Shown: in pieces, positions 5,435 through 10,218 of the stretch
Position numbering within the stretch: the stretch's first letter is position 1
Layout: the number at the start of each line of letters is the position of its first letter
Source of the DNA: Lachnospiraceae bacterium
Lineage (GTDB): Bacteria; Bacillota; Clostridia; Lachnospirales; Lachnospiraceae
Direction: 5' to 3'
Length of the DNA stretch: 12,179 nucleotides
NCBI GenBank assembly: GCA_017651385.1
Contig: JAGCCY010000078.1
Span: forward strand, 1 to 12,179
The notes under the pieces: generated by a model
Databases searched by the model: none
What the model saw: only the letters and a program-made list of their open reading frames with translations
Told to the model about the DNA's origin: nothing
Translations under genes and position numbers: made by a program

Positions 5435-5462
5435 TTGACAAACAATAAAATTGTGCTAAACT
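5435..5462 (+). promoter_or_regulatory. Sigma-A-type promoter of trxA-rbr
   Basis: A perfect -35 box TTGACA (5435-5440) is followed by a 16-base spacer and the -10 hexamer TAAACT (5457-5462). A TGC immediately before the -10 gives an extended -10 element that can offset the weaker hexamer. The predicted transcript start is near 5469, giving a leader of roughly 75 bases before the trxA ATG. Confidence 0.78.
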
Positions 5463-5463
5463 A

Positions 5464-5483
5464 AAAATCAGTAATGATTATTA
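5464..5483 (+). promoter_or_regulatory. Candidate PerR operator, copy 1
   Basis: AAAATCAGTAATGATT begins at 5464, and the 15-base core CAGTAATGATTATTA spans 5469-5483. The core has the 7-1-7 layout of Fur-family boxes and matches the Bacillus subtilis PerR consensus TTATAATNATTATAA at 10 of 14 positions. It begins six bases after the -10 hexamer, so a bound repressor would cover the transcript start. Near-identical copies lie beside perR at 9735 and 9796. PerR binding is inferred. Confidence 0.62.
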
Positions 5484-5543
5484 ATTTTGAGAGTTGTGGG
5501 TGTAAATAATATAATCCGTTTTTCTACTATGAAAGGAGATACT

Positions 5544-5855
5544 ATGGCTGAGATTACATTAACTAAGGATAACTTTGAGGCAGAAGTACTTAAATCGGAT
5601 ATTCCGGTTGTTGTGGATTTCTGGGCAACATGGTGCGGACCCTGTCAGATGATGGGACCTATTATCGAGAAGTTTGCCGAAGAATTTGAAGGCACGTATA
5701 CGGTTGGCAAGGTAAATGTCGATGATGAAGAAGAACTTGCCGAAGAATACGGTATCATGAGCATTCCCAGTATCAAGATATTTAAGAACGGCGAGAACGT
5801 AAAGAGTGTTGTGGGCGTTCAGTCAAGAGAGAAGCTTCTCGATCTTCTTAAATAA
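5544..5855 (+). CDS. trxA: Thioredoxin
   Basis: This 103-residue protein is a standard-length cytoplasmic thioredoxin that reduces disulfides in target proteins such as peroxidases and ribonucleotide reductase, and is itself recharged by thioredoxin reductase. The active site WCGPC (C31, C34) lies in VDFWATWCGPCQMM, and the cis-proline is P75 in SIPSIKIF. I chose ATG at 5544, giving MAEITLTKDNF, because AGGAG at 5534-5538 is correctly spaced. An in-frame TTG at 5487 would add 19 residues unlike thioredoxin and would sit close to the predicted transcript start. The gene is first in a two-gene unit with rubrerythrin 62 bases downstream. The candidate PerR operator at the promoter suggests induction by peroxide. 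Confidence 0.96.
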   Translation: MAEITLTKDNFEAEVLKSDIPVVVDFWATWCGPCQMMGPIIEKFAEEFEGTYTVGKVNVDDEEELAEEYGIMSIPSIKIFKNGENVKSVVGVQSREKLLDLLK

Positions 5856-5917
5856 GACAGATCTTCAGGATCAAAGAGATATTAAAAGCAAAAACTATAT
5901 AAAAGGAGAGGTTGGCT

Positions 5918-6571
5918 ATGAAAACTTACAAATGTTTGGTGTGCGGAGAAGTCTTTACGGTAGAGGACGGAGTTGAACCCGTATGCCCCAGATGCGGTGT
6001 TAAGGGCGATAAGCTCGTGCTTGCAGAGGACAAGAAGAATCCTTACGCAGGTACTCAGACAGAGAAGAATCTTCAGACTGCATTTGCAGGCGAGTCCCAG
6101 GCTCGTAACAAGTATACTTATTTTGCATCCAAGGCAAAGAAGGAAGGCTTTGAGCAGATAGCTGCTTTATTCTTACAGACAGCCGATAATGAAAAAGAAC
6201 ACGCAAAAATGTGGTTCAAAGAACTCGGCGGTATCGGCACCACAGCAGAAAACCTTGCTGCAGCCGCAGACGGTGAGAATTATGAGTGGACCGACATGTA
6301 TGATGATTTTGCAAAGACAGCCGATGCCGAAGGTTTCCATGATCTTGCTGAAAAGTTCAGAGGCGTTGCCGCTATCGAAAAGCATCATGAAGAGAGATAT
6401 CGTGCTCTTTTACACAATGTTGAGGCTCAGGAAGTATTTAAGAAGAGTGAAGTCAAGGTTTGGGAATGCCGTAACTGCGGTCATATCGTAGTAGGTACCC
6501 AGGCACCTGAGGTTTGCCCTGTATGCGCTCATCCTCAGAGCTACTTTGAAGTAAGTGCGACCAACTACTAA
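5918..6571 (+). CDS. rbr: Rubrerythrin with rubredoxin-like domains at both ends
   Basis: This 217-residue non-haem iron peroxidase reduces hydrogen peroxide to water in the anaerobe cytoplasm. Domain order is a short N-terminal rubredoxin-like knuckle (C6, C9, C23, C26), a ferritin-like diiron four-helix bundle (about 45-170), and a C-terminal rubredoxin-like domain (C184, C187, C200, C203). Likely diiron ligands are E59 (AGESQARN), E92 and H95 (EKEH), E123 and D126 (EWTDMY), and E154 and H157 (EKHH). D126 replaces the glutamate (E97) of Desulfovibrio rubrerythrin. Classical rubrerythrin has only the C-terminal iron centre and reverse rubrerythrin only the N-terminal one; this protein has both. 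I chose ATG 5918 because AGGAG is 9 bases upstream; an in-frame TTG at 5912 is too close to it. It probably shares the trxA promoter and is followed by a terminator. Confidence 0.95.
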
Positions 6572-6584
6572 GATCTTGGGTCGC

Positions 6585-6616
6585 TTTAAAAACTAAAGCT
6601 TATGTGCTAACATAAT
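6585..6616 (+). promoter_or_regulatory. Possible ldhA promoter overlapping a 16-base palindrome
   Basis: A perfect inverted repeat TTATGT-GCTA-ACATAA spans 6600-6615. It overlaps a possible extended -10 element, TGC TAACAT (6605-6613), which has a weak TTTAAA 17 bases upstream (6585-6590). This would suit an operator controlling the D-lactate dehydrogenase gene. The repeat does not clearly match the Rex box I know (TTGTTAANNNNTTAACAA), and the promoter match is weak. The following hairpin would then sit at the 5' end of the transcript. Confidence 0.33.
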
Positions 6617-6618
6617 AT

Positions 6619-6654
6619 TGCCCGCTGCCTTATGGGTAGCGGGTATTTATTTTA
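6619..6654 (+). terminator. Hairpin terminator after rbr
   Basis: A 9-base-pair stem (CCCGCTGCC at 6621-6629 with GGTAGCGGG at 6635-6643, one G-U pair) has a TTATG loop and is extended by two weaker pairs. It is followed by TATTTATTTT. It ends the trxA-rbr transcript about 50 bases after the rbr stop, and would act as a leader hairpin if the ldhA promoter lies upstream of it. Confidence 0.77.
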
Positions 6655-6704
6655 CACACAGAAAAATACCGGAAATGCACAAAAGCCGTAAAAGGAGGGT
6701 TTAC

Positions 6705-7736
6705 ATGATAAAGATAGCTTTTTTCGATGCAAAGGATTATGATATCAATTCTTTCAACAAAAATCTGACCGATGAGTTTGAAGTAAAGTTTTTTGAAACT
6801 CATCTTTCGATAGATACCGTTTCACTCGCCGCAGGTTTCGACGCGGTCTGCGTATTTGTAAACGATATGATCGACAAGGCCGTGATAGATGAGCTTGTAA
6901 AGCTTGATATAAAGCTTATTGCCCTTCGCTGCGCAGGATACAATAACGTGGATATCGAATATGCATTTAAAAAGATCCATGTCGTAAGAGTACCCGCATA
7001 TTCACCTTATGCGGTCGCTGAGCATGCAATGGCTCTTTTGCTTACATCCATAAGAAGGATCCACAAAGCCTATATCCGTACCAGGGATTTTAATTTCAGC
7101 TTATCGGGTCTTACCGGTTTCGACCTTCACGGAAAGACCGTAGGTGTAGTGGGTACAGGTAAGATCGGCCGCATCTTTATAGATATCTGTAAAGGTTTTG
7201 GCATGAACGTGATCGCCTATGATAAATTCCCTGCTAAGGACAGCGGTATAGAGTATGCGGAACTTGATGAGATATGGGCCAAAAGCGATATAATCTCCTT
7301 CCACTGCCCGCTTACAAAAGAAACCGAGCATGTGGTAAACGCGGATTCGATAGAAAAGATGAAAAAGGGAGTTGTGCTCATAAATACATCCCGAGGTGCC
7401 CTTGTGGATTCAGAAGCCCTGCTTGAGGGCATAAAAGCCAGAAAGATCGGCGCAGCATGTCTTGATGTATATGAAGAAGAATCCGATGTGTTCTTCCACG
7501 ATTTCTCGGGTCATATCGTAAACGATGATGTGCTTGCACGCCTTATCTCCATGCTCAATGTCATAGTTACTTCACATCAGGCATTTTTGACGGCAGAGGC
7601 TCTTGAAAACATTGCGGATACCACATATGCAAACATCCGTGAGTTCTTTAAGGACGGGAAATCCATAAACGAAGTGTGTTATGTATGTGACAAGATCGCT
7701 ACCTGTCCGCAGGAACATAAGGGTAAATGTTTTTAG
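6705..7736 (+). CDS. ldhA: D-lactate dehydrogenase, NAD-dependent (LdhA type)
   Basis: This 343-residue protein reduces pyruvate to D-lactate with NADH, regenerating NAD during fermentation. It follows Escherichia coli LdhA closely: LIALRCAGYNNVD (71-83), VRVPAYSPYAVAEHA (94-108), the NAD-binding GTGKIG (150-155) with D173 for NAD preference, and SFHCPLT. Catalytic residues are R230 (NTSRGALVDS), E259 (DVYEEE) and H291 (SHQAFLTAEAL). I chose ATG 6705 because AGGAGG at 6693-6698 is ideally placed and the protein then starts like LdhA; the frame extends back to 6618 only through the terminator. The last 19 residues, after INEV, hold four cysteines (C325, C328, C334, C342) that E. coli LdhA lacks. 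It is probably the first gene of a unit with the thioesterase (36-base gap) and cls. Confidence 0.93.
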   Translation: MIKIAFFDAKDYDINSFNKNLTDEFEVKFFETHLSIDTVSLAAGFDAVCVFVNDMIDKAVIDELVKLDIKLIALRCAGYNNVDIEYAFKKIHVVRVPAYSPYAVAEHAMALLLTSIRRIHKAYIRTRDFNFSLSGLTGFDLHGKTVGVVGTGKIGRIFIDICKGFGMNVIAYDKFPAKDSGIEYAELDEIWAKSDIISFHCPLTKETEHVVNADSIEKMKKGVVLINTSRGALVDSEALLEGIKARKIGAACLDVYEEESDVFFHDFSGHIVNDDVLARLISMLNVIVTSHQAFLTAEALENIADTTYANIREFFKDGKSINEVCYVCDKIATCPQEHKGKCF

Positions 7737-7772
7737 ATAGAATTTTGACAGTTTAATAAGCCGGAGGGGAGA

Positions 7773-8183
7773 ATGTACAAACACGATTATAAGCATACGG
7801 TTCAATATTATGAAACGGATAAAATGGGGGTTACGCACCATTCGAATTATATAAGGTGGATGGAGGAAGCCAGGGGTGATTTCCTTGAGAAAAACGGTAT
7901 AGGCTATGCCGGAATGGAAGAAAAGGGGATAGTATCGCCTGTTGTATCGATAAACTGTGACTATAAGCGCACCACGACCTATGCCGACACCATCGATATA
8001 GAACTTTGGATAAAAGAATACGACGGGGTCAAACTGACCGTTTCATATGACATGAAGCTTGACAGTCAAACGGTATTTACGGCCGAATCATCCCATTGTT
8101 TTTTGACCAAAGAAGGAAAGATCGTTATCTTAAAGAAAAAATATCCGGAATATGATACAATACTTAACAGTCTTAAGGGGTAG
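7773..8183 (+). CDS. Acyl-CoA thioesterase, YbgC/FadM-type hotdog fold
   Basis: This 136-residue protein has the size and N-terminal signature of the 4-hydroxybenzoyl-CoA thioesterase family: YYETDKMGVTHHSNYIRWMEEAR at residues 12-34, split here as YYETDKMGV and HHSNYIRWMEEAR. D16 is the expected catalytic aspartate, and H22/H23 and Y26 line the CoA-thioester site. Members hydrolyse acyl-CoA or acyl-ACP in the cytoplasm; the natural acyl chain cannot be told from sequence. GGAGGGG at 7763-7769 precedes the ATG. It lies between a fermentation enzyme and a phospholipid synthase with gaps of 36 and 20 bases, which fits a housekeeping role in CoA recycling or lipid metabolism, though this is inference. 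Confidence 0.9.
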   Translation: MYKHDYKHTVQYYETDKMGVTHHSNYIRWMEEARGDFLEKNGIGYAGMEEKGIVSPVVSINCDYKRTTTYADTIDIELWIKEYDGVKLTVSYDMKLDSQTVFTAESSHCFLTKEGKIVILKKKYPEYDTILNSLKG

Positions 8184-8203
8184 AACGTATTTCGGAGAAG
8201 AGA

Positions 8204-9730
8204 ATGAAGAATTACTTTAGCGGGTTTTTAAGAGCTTTGGTGGTATCCCTTTTGATCCTTTTACAGTTCGGGATAATAATCGCGATCGGGATCACTTTAA
8301 GGAACAAGGGAATATATGTTTATCTTTTGGTGGAGTTTGCGTTTACGATAGTCATACTCTGCCTTTTAAACAGGCGGGCCAACAATCTTTATAAGTTTGG
8401 CTGGCTTTTTCTTATTGCCGTTCTGCCGGTGAGCGGTATCATCATGTATCTTCTTTGGGGCAGGGAGAGAAGCACCAAAAAGATAAGAGACAGATCCAAG
8501 AAGCTTCTTTCTTACGGAGAACGGTTTGACACATATTCTTACGAAGCATCGAAAAGATTAAATGACCTGTTTCCCGACGAAGTAAAACTGTCAAAATTTC
8601 TTGAAGGCTTTCATTTCCCGCTTTCGGTCGGCAATATGTTTAAATATTTCGATTCCGGCGAAAGCGTATTTGATGCGGTGATCGAGGATATTAATAGGGC
8701 GGAAAGGTTTGTTTTTCTTAACTTCTTTATCCTTGCCGACGGGGAGCTTTGGAACCGTGTAAAGGAAGCGATACTTAAAAAACGCGAAGAGGGCGTTGAA
8801 ATAAGGATACTCTACGATGATTTCGGCTCGATGTTCCGTACCGACAGGCAGTTTTTCAAAGAACTTGAAGATAAGGGTATATTGACTGCCTGCATTAACC
8901 CGATCTCAAAATATCTCAATAAGCTATATTTTAATTACAGAGATCATCAGAAGATGATAATAATCGACGGAAATATCGGATATACCGGCGGGTTTAACCT
9001 TGCCGACGAGTATGTGAACATCATAAAACGCTTCGGATATTGGAAGGACGGCGGCGTCAGGATAGAGGGACCGGGCGTTAAGGATATGACTTCCAGATTC
9101 TTAAATATGTGGGGACTGTCAAAAGGAAAGAATGAAGAAGACTACAAAAAGTACGATCCTGATGCGGCTCCGATATCCACGGTCGGCTTCATGCAGTTTA
9201 TATCCGACGGGCCCGAGAACAATCCGGACAACCCGGTCGCAGATACTATAATGCAGCTTATATATAATGCAAAGGATTATCTGTATATAACAACTCCGTA
9301 TCTTCTTATTGAGGATGATATGAGCGAGGCATTGGTGCGCGCCGCAAAGTCGGGAGTCGATGTAAGGATAATAACACCGCACATTCCCGATAAGAAGATG
9401 GTCTTTTTGCTTACGAGAAACAACTACGGAAAGCTTTTGCAGGGAGGCGTCAGGATATTTGAATATACTCCCGGTTTTGTCCATGCCAAGAACATAGTCA
9501 CAAGGGATGTTTCGGTTATCGGTACCATCAACCTTGATTACAGAAGTCTTTTCCTTCACTATGAATGCGGCGCTGTGATATATGACAATAATCTTTCTTT
9601 TACCGTAAAAGAAGATATATTAAAAATGATCGAAGCCTCCGAAGAGGTTACCTACGAAAACTGGCTTAAACGCCCGTTATGGGATAAAGTGCTTCAGTGG
9701 TTCTTAAATGTATTTTCGGGTCTTGCCTGA
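8204..9730 (+). CDS. cls: Cardiolipin synthase
   Basis: This 508-residue membrane enzyme joins two phosphatidylglycerol molecules into cardiolipin plus glycerol. The N-terminus has three likely membrane segments (about 8-31, 37-56 and 66-85, the last ending in the family motif YLLWGRE). Two phospholipase D domains follow. HKD motif 1 is H248, K250, D255 in HQKMIIIDG, with GYTGGFNLADEY after it. Motif 2 is H427 and K429 in FVHAKNIVTRD, with GTINLDYRS after it; the usual motif Asp (lysine plus five) is R434 here, and the next residue is D435. Length and layout match bacterial Cls. A GGAG 6 bases upstream supports the ATG. No terminator is visible after it, so read-through into perR is possible. 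Confidence 0.95.
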   Translation: MKNYFSGFLRALVVSLLILLQFGIIIAIGITLRNKGIYVYLLVEFAFTIVILCLLNRRANNLYKFGWLFLIAVLPVSGIIMYLLWGRERSTKKIRDRSKKLLSYGERFDTYSYEASKRLNDLFPDEVKLSKFLEGFHFPLSVGNMFKYFDSGESVFDAVIEDINRAERFVFLNFFILADGELWNRVKEAILKKREEGVEIRILYDDFGSMFRTDRQFFKELEDKGILTACINPISKYLNKLYFNYRDHQKMIIIDGNIGYTGGFNLADEYVNIIKRFGYWKDGGVRIEGPGVKDMTSRFLNMWGLSKGKNEEDYKKYDPDAAPISTVGFMQFISDGPENNPDNPVADTIMQLIYNAKDYLYITTPYLLIEDDMSEALVRAAKSGVDVRIITPHIPDKKMVFLLTRNNYGKLLQGGVRIFEYTPGFVHAKNIVTRDVSVIGTINLDYRSLFLHYECGAVIYDNNLSFTVKEDILKMIEASEEVTYENWLKRPLWDKVLQWFLNVFSGLA

Positions 9731-9734
9731 TCAT

Positions 9735-9753
9735 AAAACAGTAATAATTCCTA
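9735..9753 (+). promoter_or_regulatory. Candidate PerR operator, copy 2
   Basis: AAAACAGTAATAATT runs from 9735 to 9749, with the 15-base core CAGTAATAATTCCTA at 9739-9753. It starts just after the cls stop and ends 8 bases before the perR -35 box. It is in the same orientation as copy 1 and inverted relative to copy 3, whose centre is 57 bases downstream. Two sites flanking the promoter suggest cooperative autoregulation. Binding is inferred from similarity. Confidence 0.5.
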
Positions 9754-9761
9754 TTTTCTTC

Positions 9762-9789
9762 TTGACTTTACTTGAAAGGATGGTATAGT
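9762..9789 (+). promoter_or_regulatory. Sigma-A-type promoter of perR
   Basis: TTGACT (9762-9767), a 16-base spacer and TATAGT (9784-9789), with TGG before the -10 as an extended element. The spacer length and extended -10 layout match the trxA promoter. Predicted transcript start is near 9796. Confidence 0.8.
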
Positions 9790-9795
9790 AAAAAT

Positions 9796-9815
9796 GAGGA
9801 ATGATTACTGATTTT
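9796..9815 (-). promoter_or_regulatory. Candidate PerR operator, copy 3
   Basis: Read on the minus strand, AAAATCAGTAATCATT (9815-9800) matches copy 1 at 15 of 16 positions; only the central base differs. The 15-base core occupies 9796-9810 and begins six bases after the -10 hexamer, the same placement as copy 1 at trxA. A bound repressor would block the perR start site, giving negative autoregulation. Confidence 0.6.
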
Positions 9816-9825
9816 AGGAGGCAAT

Positions 9826-10218
9826 ATGAATCACAGCAAGCAACGGGATCTCATAACGGATTATCTTATGAGCACAAAATCTCATCCAACTGCTGAGGAA
9901 GTATATAACGAAGTCAAGTTAAAAGAGCCAACCATAAGTCTGGGCACGGTCTACAGGAATTTGAATCTTCTTGCGGACAATAATATCATCGTGCGGCTTC
10001 ACATGAAAGACGGCATTGATCATTATGATGCGGACACAAGTGAGCATTATCATTTTTACTGTAACTGCTGCGGCCGCGTATACGATCTTGATATAAAGGC
10101 TCCCGCTGCATTTAACAAATGTATCGCTTCGAAGGGTGATGCATCGGGTCATAAGATCGAAGGCGCCATGGTGTATTTTTACGGAACATGCAAGGATTGT
10201 GCGCTTAAGACAGACTGA
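9826..10218 (+). CDS. perR: Peroxide-sensing Fur-family repressor PerR
   Basis: This 130-residue DNA-binding repressor has an N-terminal winged helix (recognition region PTISLGTVYRNLNLL, 35-49) and a C-terminal metal-binding dimerisation domain. Aligned to Bacillus subtilis PerR, the regulatory metal ligands are H20, D68, H74, H76 and D87 (equivalents of H37, D85, H91, H93, D104). The structural zinc cysteines are C79, C82, C122 and C125. Aspartate at the D104 position is the feature associated with peroxide sensing rather than iron sensing, so PerR is favoured over Fur. The protein is about 15 residues shorter than the Bacillus form, with the loss at the N-terminus. AGGAGG at 9816-9821 supports ATG 9826. 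It has its own promoter flanked by two operator-like copies, and a terminator follows. Confidence 0.9.
   Translation: MNHSKQRDLITDYLMSTKSHPTAEEVYNEVKLKEPTISLGTVYRNLNLLADNNIIVRLHMKDGIDHYDADTSEHYHFYCNCCGRVYDLDIKAPAAFNKCIASKGDASGHKIEGAMVYFYGTCKDCALKTD

What the first reader, a model, noticed from the sequence alone, without database searches (positions are those of the whole stretch)
5464..9815. Three copies of a PerR-box-like motif with identical placement at two promoters
The motif AAAA(T)CAGTAATNATT occurs at 5464-5479, at 9735-9749, and on the minus strand at 9815-9800. Copies 1 and 3 match at 15 of 16 positions. At both promoters (trxA-rbr and perR) the 15-base core starts exactly six bases after the -10 hexamer, and both promoters have a 16-base spacer and an extended -10 TGN. 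The orientation is reversed between the two, as expected for a dimer-binding site where only the centre position matters. The core has the 7-1-7 Fur-family layout, but one half (CAGTAAT) differs from the Bacillus PerR half-site (TTATAAT), so this may be a lineage-specific PerR operator.
Basis: partly seen in the sequence, partly recalled or inferred. Interest (0 to 1): 0.7.

Follow-up and report, generated by a model that had tools for sequence, protein, structure and literature searches.

The report
Peroxide-sensor operator with variant half-sites
Three short DNA sites in front of a peroxide-sensor gene and a peroxide-removing gene pair look like the docking sites of that sensor, in a spelling that differs from the textbook one and recurs across a large family of gut bacteria.

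Summary
The motif is one half, plus the centre, of a 7-1-7 palindrome, YAGTAAYNRTTACTR. All three window copies are one change from its 13-base core; only six such sites exist in the 1.9-Mb draft genome. Of 105 perR upstream regions from relatives, 78 carry the core within one mismatch, against 0.4 expected. It recurs before reverse rubrerythrin, AhpC, rubredoxin and other peroxide-defence genes. So it is very probably the PerR operator. Corrections: being palindromic, its 'reversed orientation' means nothing; at relatives of the window's rbr it is mostly absent, also in genomes that have PerR; and the same operator type was predicted for Desulfovibrio PerR in 2004 (PMC545781), so it is not unique to this lineage. 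New lead: these PerR proteins keep the PerR metal ligands and Asp104 but have Arg at DNA-reading position 61 (Asn in Bacillus) and Gly at 57; Gly57 against Ala57 tracks operators with G against A at position 3, the best-associated of 126 columns, though only two supported independent pairs exist. I have no binding data.

The parts
5469..5483 (+). Operator O1, CAGTAATGATTATTA, 7-1-7, centre 5476, in the trxA-rbr promoter
   Evidence: identical in sister genome G063
5435..5462 (+). trxA-rbr promoter: -35 TTGACA 5435-5440, extended -10 TGC TAAACT 5454-5462
   Evidence: sequence; conserved in G063
5544..5855 (+). trxA, thioredoxin
   Evidence: TIGR01068 122 bits over cut-off 96.8; PF00085
5918..6571 (+). 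rbr, rubrerythrin; rubredoxin-like domain at the C end and a second rubredoxin-like stretch at the N end
   Evidence: NF045767 251 bits over cut-off 200; PF02915, RUBY_RBDX with two stretches (best 182-211), DUF7130 at 3-36
9739..9753 (+). Operator O2, CAGTAATAATTCCTA, upstream of the perR -35
   Evidence: identical in G063
9762..9789 (+). perR promoter: -35 TTGACT 9762-9767, extended -10 TGG TATAGT 9781-9789
   Evidence: sequence; conserved in G063
9796..9810 (+). Operator O3, GAGGAATGATTACTG, over the expected (not mapped) transcription start of perR
   Evidence: similar position in relatives
9826..10218 (+). perR-like Fur-family regulator, 130 aa; ligands H20 D68 H74 H76 D87, CxxC pairs 79/82 and 122/125, G40 and R44 in the reading helix
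   Evidence: PF01475 88 bits; alignment to B. subtilis PerR 2fe3; 20-row alignment

Best explanation
The three sites are operators of the PerR-type repressor encoded at 9826-10218. Inferred mechanism: a metal-loaded PerR dimer binds the 15-bp palindrome over the start of transcription of trxA-rbr and of its own gene and blocks RNA polymerase, with O2 upstream of the perR promoter as a second contact. Peroxide oxidises a metal-ligand histidine (H20 or H74, the equivalents of Bacillus His37 and His91), the dimer lets go, and thioredoxin, rubrerythrin and PerR are made. Shown here: the sites, their place, their conservation and target genes across relatives, and the metal-site residues. Inferred: binding, peroxide response, repression. 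The operator spelling goes with a PerR group that has Gly57 and Arg61 (Bacillus numbering).
For: Operator core within one mismatch in 78 of 105 perR upstream regions (42 exact), 0.38 expected from shuffles, 1 of 105 with the reversed pattern. Across those loci 119 hits against 8 for the reversed pattern in 534,905 bases. Of 41 hits outside the perR promoter I followed 35; 34 have a rubredoxin-rubrerythrin (reverse rubrerythrin) gene right after them. Perfect sites also precede AhpC, rubredoxin, flavin reductase-rubredoxin, Fe-hydrogenase and rubrerythrin genes at 10 of 49 further loci. Three of the window genome's six near-matches lie at these two promoters. Ligands H37, D85, H91, H93, D104 and both CxxC pairs in 20 of 20 aligned proteins. 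In the genus, rbr has the operator in 2 of 2 genomes with PerR and 0 of 15 without.
Against: No binding or expression data. Exact sites are not over-represented genome-wide (95 against 163 for the reversed pattern in 60 genomes, my sums). At the best rbr of 29 family genomes examined (G000 included) the operator within one mismatch stands in 3, and 17 of the 26 without it do have a PerR-type protein by my reading; so absence of PerR does not explain most absences, and the genus result (2/2 against 0/15, two sister species) is at most one event. 27 of 105 perR regions have no site within one mismatch and 7 none within two. NCBIfam PerR models match below cut-off (104.9 against 180).
Confidence: 0.86

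Rival explanations
1. The sites are bound by the other Fur-family protein of the genome (C274), and perR is only a neighbour.
For: A second Fur homologue exists. Fur, PerR and Zur boxes share the TAATNATTA core, and Gram-positive Zur boxes share G at position 3 (TCGTAATNATTACGA, PMC545781). The C274 protein also has Arg at 61 and looks Zur-like to me (label recalled).
Against: The site follows perR itself and peroxide-defence genes in relatives. In the genus, genomes with a C274-like protein but no PerR lack it at rbr. By eye no metal-uptake gene stood out among the sites, but most of those genes were not searched against a library.
Confidence: 0.08
2. Chance: AT-rich promoter sequence.
For: The in-window count alone is reached by 20 of 200 shuffles; matches to the core across whole genomes do not exceed the reversed pattern.
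Against: (78 of 105 against 0.38 expected), the clustering, and identity in G063.
Confidence: 0.02
3. Only O3 at perR is a working operator; O1 and O2 are weak or secondary.
For: A second site within two mismatches is uncommon (5 of 105 perR regions), and the operator is absent at most rbr relatives, also where PerR is present.
Against: O1 and O2 are unchanged in G063, and O1 has the same placement as O3.
Confidence: 0.17

Closest known systems
Bacillus subtilis PerR and PerR box (TTATAATNATTATAA, as quoted in PMC545781)
   Same: 7-1-7 palindrome with TAAT-N-ATTA centre; all five regulatory ligands including Asp104; site at its own gene and at peroxide-defence genes
   Different: Half-site YAGTAAY instead of TTATAAT; Arg instead of Asn at 61 and Gly instead of Ala at 57
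Predicted PerR sites of Desulfovibrio (PMC545781 Table 7, passage seen)
   Same: D. vulgaris perR-rbr-rdl AtCAGTAATtGTTACTGgT, rbr2 AATAGGAATCGTTCCTGTT and ahpC cACAGGAATGATTCCTGTT: same operator type, same target classes, including the GGAAT half seen at O2 and O3
   Different: Another phylum; prediction only; residue 57 of that PerR was not checked here
Fur box (GATAATNATTATC; recalled, and E. coli consensus in PMC545781)
   Same: Arg at position 61 (PMC8638851); 7-1-7
   Different: Positions 2-3 are G-A there and A-G here; Fur has Glu at 104 (PMC8638851)
Gram-positive Zur box (TAAATCGTAATNATTACGATTTA in PMC545781)
   Same: G at position 3, TAAT centre
   Different: C instead of A at position 2; zinc-uptake targets

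Membership tests
PerR (peroxide-sensing Fur family) | Fur fold / Pfam FUR | tested here: met
   PF01475 88.3 bits, cut-off 23.1
PerR (peroxide-sensing Fur family) | Regulatory metal ligands H37, D85, H91, H93, D104 (list recalled; H37, H91 and D104 also) | tested here: met
   H20, D68, H74, H76, D87 in the window protein; invariant in 20 of 20 rows
PerR (peroxide-sensing Fur family) | Structural zinc: two CxxC | tested here: met
   C79/C82 and C122/C125, 20 of 20
PerR (peroxide-sensing Fur family) | Asn61 in helix 4, called canonical for PerR in PMC8638851 | tested here: not met
   Arg in the window protein (R44) and in 105 of 105 relatives (75 of them fetched with a peptide that contains this Arg, the 30 others not)
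PerR (peroxide-sensing Fur family) | NCBIfam PerR equivalog cut-off | tested here: not met
   NF052545 104.9 of 180; NF047406 79.6 of 200
PerR (peroxide-sensing Fur family) | Sites at own promoter and at peroxide-defence genes | tested here: met
   perR, reverse rubrerythrin, AhpC, rubredoxin, rubrerythrin in relatives; presence of sites only, not regulation
PerR (peroxide-sensing Fur family) | Metal-catalysed histidine oxidation and release from DNA | not testable with these tools
   needs purified protein
Bacillus PerR box | 7-1-7 palindrome around TAAT-N-ATTA | tested here: met
   98 of 105 perR regions have a site within two mismatches of AGTAAYNRTTACT
Bacillus PerR box | Half-site TTATAAT | tested here: not met
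   0 of 196 half-sites (sites chosen by likeness to AGTAAT, so biased); with the neutral core TAAYNRTTA no half with T-A at positions 2-3 among 81 sites of the family and named Gly57 sets
Fur box | Half-site GATAAT | tested here: not met
   no window half-site; in relatives one GA/GA site and some single GA halves among 81 neutral-core sites
Zur box | Half-site TCGTAAT and zinc-uptake targets | tested here: not met
   0 of 196 half-sites (biased as above); a C-G half occurs in 3 class sites; annotated targets are peroxide and redox genes

The most novel reading that the evidence does not exclude
The Gly57/Arg61 PerR proteins are a third DNA-reading class of the Fur family. With Ala57, Arg61 reads a G at operator position 2 (Fur-like GATAAT); with Gly57 the helix can sit deeper and Arg61 reads the G one step inward (AGTAAT). 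One small residue, which I did not find described in the papers searched, would then shift the register and keep PerR and Fur regulons apart although both carry Arg61.
Probability: 0.4. Interest if true: 0.6.

Novelty: new variant of a known kind. Interest (0 to 1): 0.45.

Why it matters
It gives a sharp operator model for finding peroxide regulons in a dominant family of anaerobic gut bacteria, where a screen with the Bacillus PerR box would miss them, and it turns a vague question (what separates Fur, PerR and Zur boxes) into a one-residue test.

Tried and rejected
Chance was tested with shuffles, the reversed pattern and genome-wide counts. Counting sites genome-wide led nowhere (95 against 163 for the reversed pattern, my sums; 6 against 6; 33 against 104 in G000, 61 against 157 in G063), so I relied on place. 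A wider regulon in the window organism was not found: of the other three near-matches in G000 two lie inside ORFs and one (C71:2891) precedes a lipoprotein-like gene. Of the weaker sites I looked at nine stretches besides C71: one pair shared with G063 lies inside an ORF, another shared pair has no recognised gene, the rest are unshared; the remainder were not examined.

Conservation upstream of rbr was expected and is mostly absent, also in genomes with PerR. My first wording, that the rbr relatives without a site are mostly in genomes without PerR, did not survive recounting: in the family set 9 of 26 lack PerR and 17 have it; adding the genus, 4 of 21 PerR-positive against 0 of 24 PerR-negative genomes have the site at their best rbr (Fisher 0.04, relatedness ignored). 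I lowered the main confidence from 0.88 to 0.86 for this. A simple rule 'Arg61 gives AGTAAT' was rejected: Ala57/Arg61 proteins have GATAAT-type sites. A tree of PerR proteins is too poorly resolved to settle whether the window's perR was gained or kept.

Papers: PMC4866751, PMC4324032, PMC11980386, PMC3828012, PMC13404960, PMC8638851, PMC3293774, PMC4219657, PMC545781 were seen as found passages only. Hillmann 2009 (PMC2747897) is not held. That this operator is not in print for Lachnospiraceae rests on searches of an open-access library only; RegPrecise logos and subscription papers were not seen.
Full report
What is there. The window codes for carB, dapF, an LL-diaminopimelate aminotransferase, trxA (5544-5855), rbr (5918-6571), a 2-hydroxyacid dehydrogenase, a thioesterase, a cardiolipin synthase, a Fur-family regulator (9826-10218), an acyltransferase and a PGA_cap-domain protein (carB and dapF are named by recall from their translations). 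The window is contig C42 of a 1.9-Mb, 72% complete draft.

The motif is a palindrome. The upstream regions of perR in relatives show that CAGTAATNATT is one half and the centre of YAGTAAYNRTTACTR. I took 105 upstream regions of up to 200 bp (30 from unnamed family genomes, one locus giving two genes; 75 from named records; five loci dropped: two with a protein already counted, one too short, two in which my gene pattern failed). The core AGTAAYNRTTACT occurs exactly in 42, with one mismatch in 36, with two in 20, and in 7 not within two; shuffles give 0.38 regions within one mismatch and the reversed pattern gives 1. The flanks are conserved too (mostly AAA before, TTT after). For 94 of 98 sites a promoter could be fitted with the -10 sought only in the 24 bases before the site; the 15-mer then starts most often 4 or 5 bases after the -10 (46 of 94); the window's two have 6. 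Half-sites over the 98 sites (196 halves, chosen by likeness to AGTAAT) are TAGTAAT 52, CAGTAAT 43, TAGTAAC 25, TAATAAT 16, CAGTAAC 12, CAATAAT 8, TAGGAAT 7, CAGGAAT 6, TGATAAT 6 and rarer ones. The window's TAATAAT and TAGGAAT halves are among them; GAGGAAT is not.

In the window genome six sites lie within one mismatch of AGTAATNATTACT; three are the window's (the reversed pattern also gives six; binomial for three in this window 5e-6, post hoc). In sister genome G063 seven exist, three at the same promoters with identical letters. The other three in G000 are in ORFs (two) or before a lipoprotein-like gene.

Targets. In the perR loci of relatives the core within one mismatch occurs 119 times in 534,905 bases, against 8 for the reversed pattern; 78 are in the perR promoters and 41 elsewhere. 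I followed 35 of the 41 (left out: three second copies in the same stretch and three distant hits): 34 have, after the site, a gene for a rubrerythrin with an N-terminal rubredoxin domain (reverse rubrerythrin; family seen from the sequence and from Pfam on one like it, L295), and for one no gene was found; the 34 proteins align at 75% mean column identity. Of perfect sites in 60 family genomes (75 of 95 listed) 24 lie within 200 bp of perR and one 789 bp past it, by my reading of the coordinates. I fetched the 49 loci with the other 50 sites: many lie inside ORFs, but ten loci have the site before genes for AhpC (L293), reverse rubrerythrin (L295), rubredoxin-domain proteins (L296, L308; at L308 my rough ORF test calls the site inside a 163-codon ORF), flavin reductase-rubredoxin (L298), Fe-hydrogenase (L305, L310) and rubrerythrin (L315, L329, L333) (Pfam; only these ten proteins were searched). 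Total exact sites are not in excess (95 against 163 reversed), so place, not number, carries the evidence.

The rbr gene of the window. Of 30 rbr loci examined in the family (of 77 matches listed) the operator within one mismatch is upstream in three: the window, L283 (61% identical Rbr) and L284 (67%); one locus lacked a recognisable start motif and the other 26 have three or more mismatches within the stretch held. A second rbr of G031 (71% identical), found through its site, also has it (L333). By my reading, 17 of those 26 genomes do have a PerR-type protein, so lack of PerR does not explain most absences. In the genus, rbr is found in 17 of 18 genomes; the two with a PerR orthologue (window and G063) have a trxA and the operator upstream of rbr; in the 15 without PerR neither was found in the fetched stretch (only 302 bp upstream for L171; Fisher 0.007, but the two positives are sister species). 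The Fur homologues of these genera that my pattern could read (eight besides PerR of G063) lack the HPTA histidine and have His, not Asp, at position 104. So rbr came under this operator, with trxA, in the window's lineage, or kept it there while most relatives did not.

The regulator. The window protein aligns to B. subtilis PerR (2fe3, E 7e-20) and keeps all five regulatory ligands and both CxxC pairs, invariant in 20 of 20 relatives. Asp at 104 is held to make PerR peroxide-sensitive and Asn61 against Arg61 to separate PerR and Fur boxes in B. subtilis (PMC8638851, passage). The window protein has Asp104 but Arg61, as do 105 of 105 relatives for Arg61 (the 75 named ones were fetched with the peptide SLGTVYRNL and are biased, the 30 unnamed are not). 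It works like PerR by ligands and linked genes, but is not canonical in DNA reading.

Residue 57. In other families of the class, proteins with GTVYRNL mostly have AGTAAT operators and proteins with ATVYRNL mostly GATAATNATTATC (first seen). I took every gene found in 241 loci (206 distinct genes, 19 duplicates dropped, 17 loci without a gene found) and required only the neutral core TAAYNRTTA within 200 bp. Among Arg61 genes with a site, G stands at position 3 of at least one half in 101 of 115 with Gly57 and in 1 of 12 with Ala57; without the biased named set 46 of 55 and 1 of 12 (Fisher 1.3e-6). Of 126 protein columns residue 57 is the best associated, the next having p 0.00025. In the loci fetched after the idea arose (L413-L474) the counts are 16 of 17 and 0 of 4 (some of these share near-identical sites). 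Limits: 48 Gly57 and 14 Ala57 genes had no core site, among them the window's own perR, whose two sites each have one GGAAT half; and on a tree only two supported independent pairs exist, mean agreement 1.8 of 2 over random pairings, which cannot reach significance. Structure gives some support: the equivalent of Arg61 in E. coli Zur bonds to purine N7 (PMC4219657, passage), and a model of a cyanobacterial PerR puts the Ala of ATVY near the bases (PMC3293774, passage).

Known before. The Bacillus PerR box and the Gram-positive Zur box are quoted in PMC545781, whose Table 7 predicts Desulfovibrio PerR sites with the same AGTAAT and AGGAAT halves at perR-rbr-rdl, rbr2 and ahpC (passage). The operator type is therefore not new to science; its use across Lachnospiraceae and the link to residue 57 are what I did not find in print (searches; open-access library only).

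Noticed in passing
window 9826-10218; L062: perR is present in only 2 of 18 genomes of the window's genus; its nearest outside relative is in a Treponema-labelled MAG (55% identity; starred branch) with a perfect CAGTAATGATTACTG operator. Gain by transfer, or a misbinned contig.
   Followed up: partly
window 5918-6571: The rubrerythrin has rubredoxin-like stretches at both ends; L315, the rbr of G055 with two perfect operators upstream, has a similar layout.
   Followed up: partly
L046 (G038:C8): Two perR copies side by side, one SLGTVYRNL and one SLATVYRNL; the Ala57 copy has a mixed site AGATAACAATTACTA, a natural pair for the residue-57 idea.
   Followed up: partly
L041, L049, L054 downstream of perR: Two operator copies in tandem before the reverse rubrerythrin gene.
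   Followed up: no
window 9739-9753: Operator O2 begins 9 bases after the cls stop codon, so cls and the perR promoter are packed together; centre-to-centre distance to O3 is 57 bp (about five and a half helical turns).
   Followed up: no
L002 (G000:C274): The genome's other Fur-family protein lacks the HPTA histidine and Asp104 and has ATVYRNL; it looks Zur-like (label recalled).
   Followed up: no
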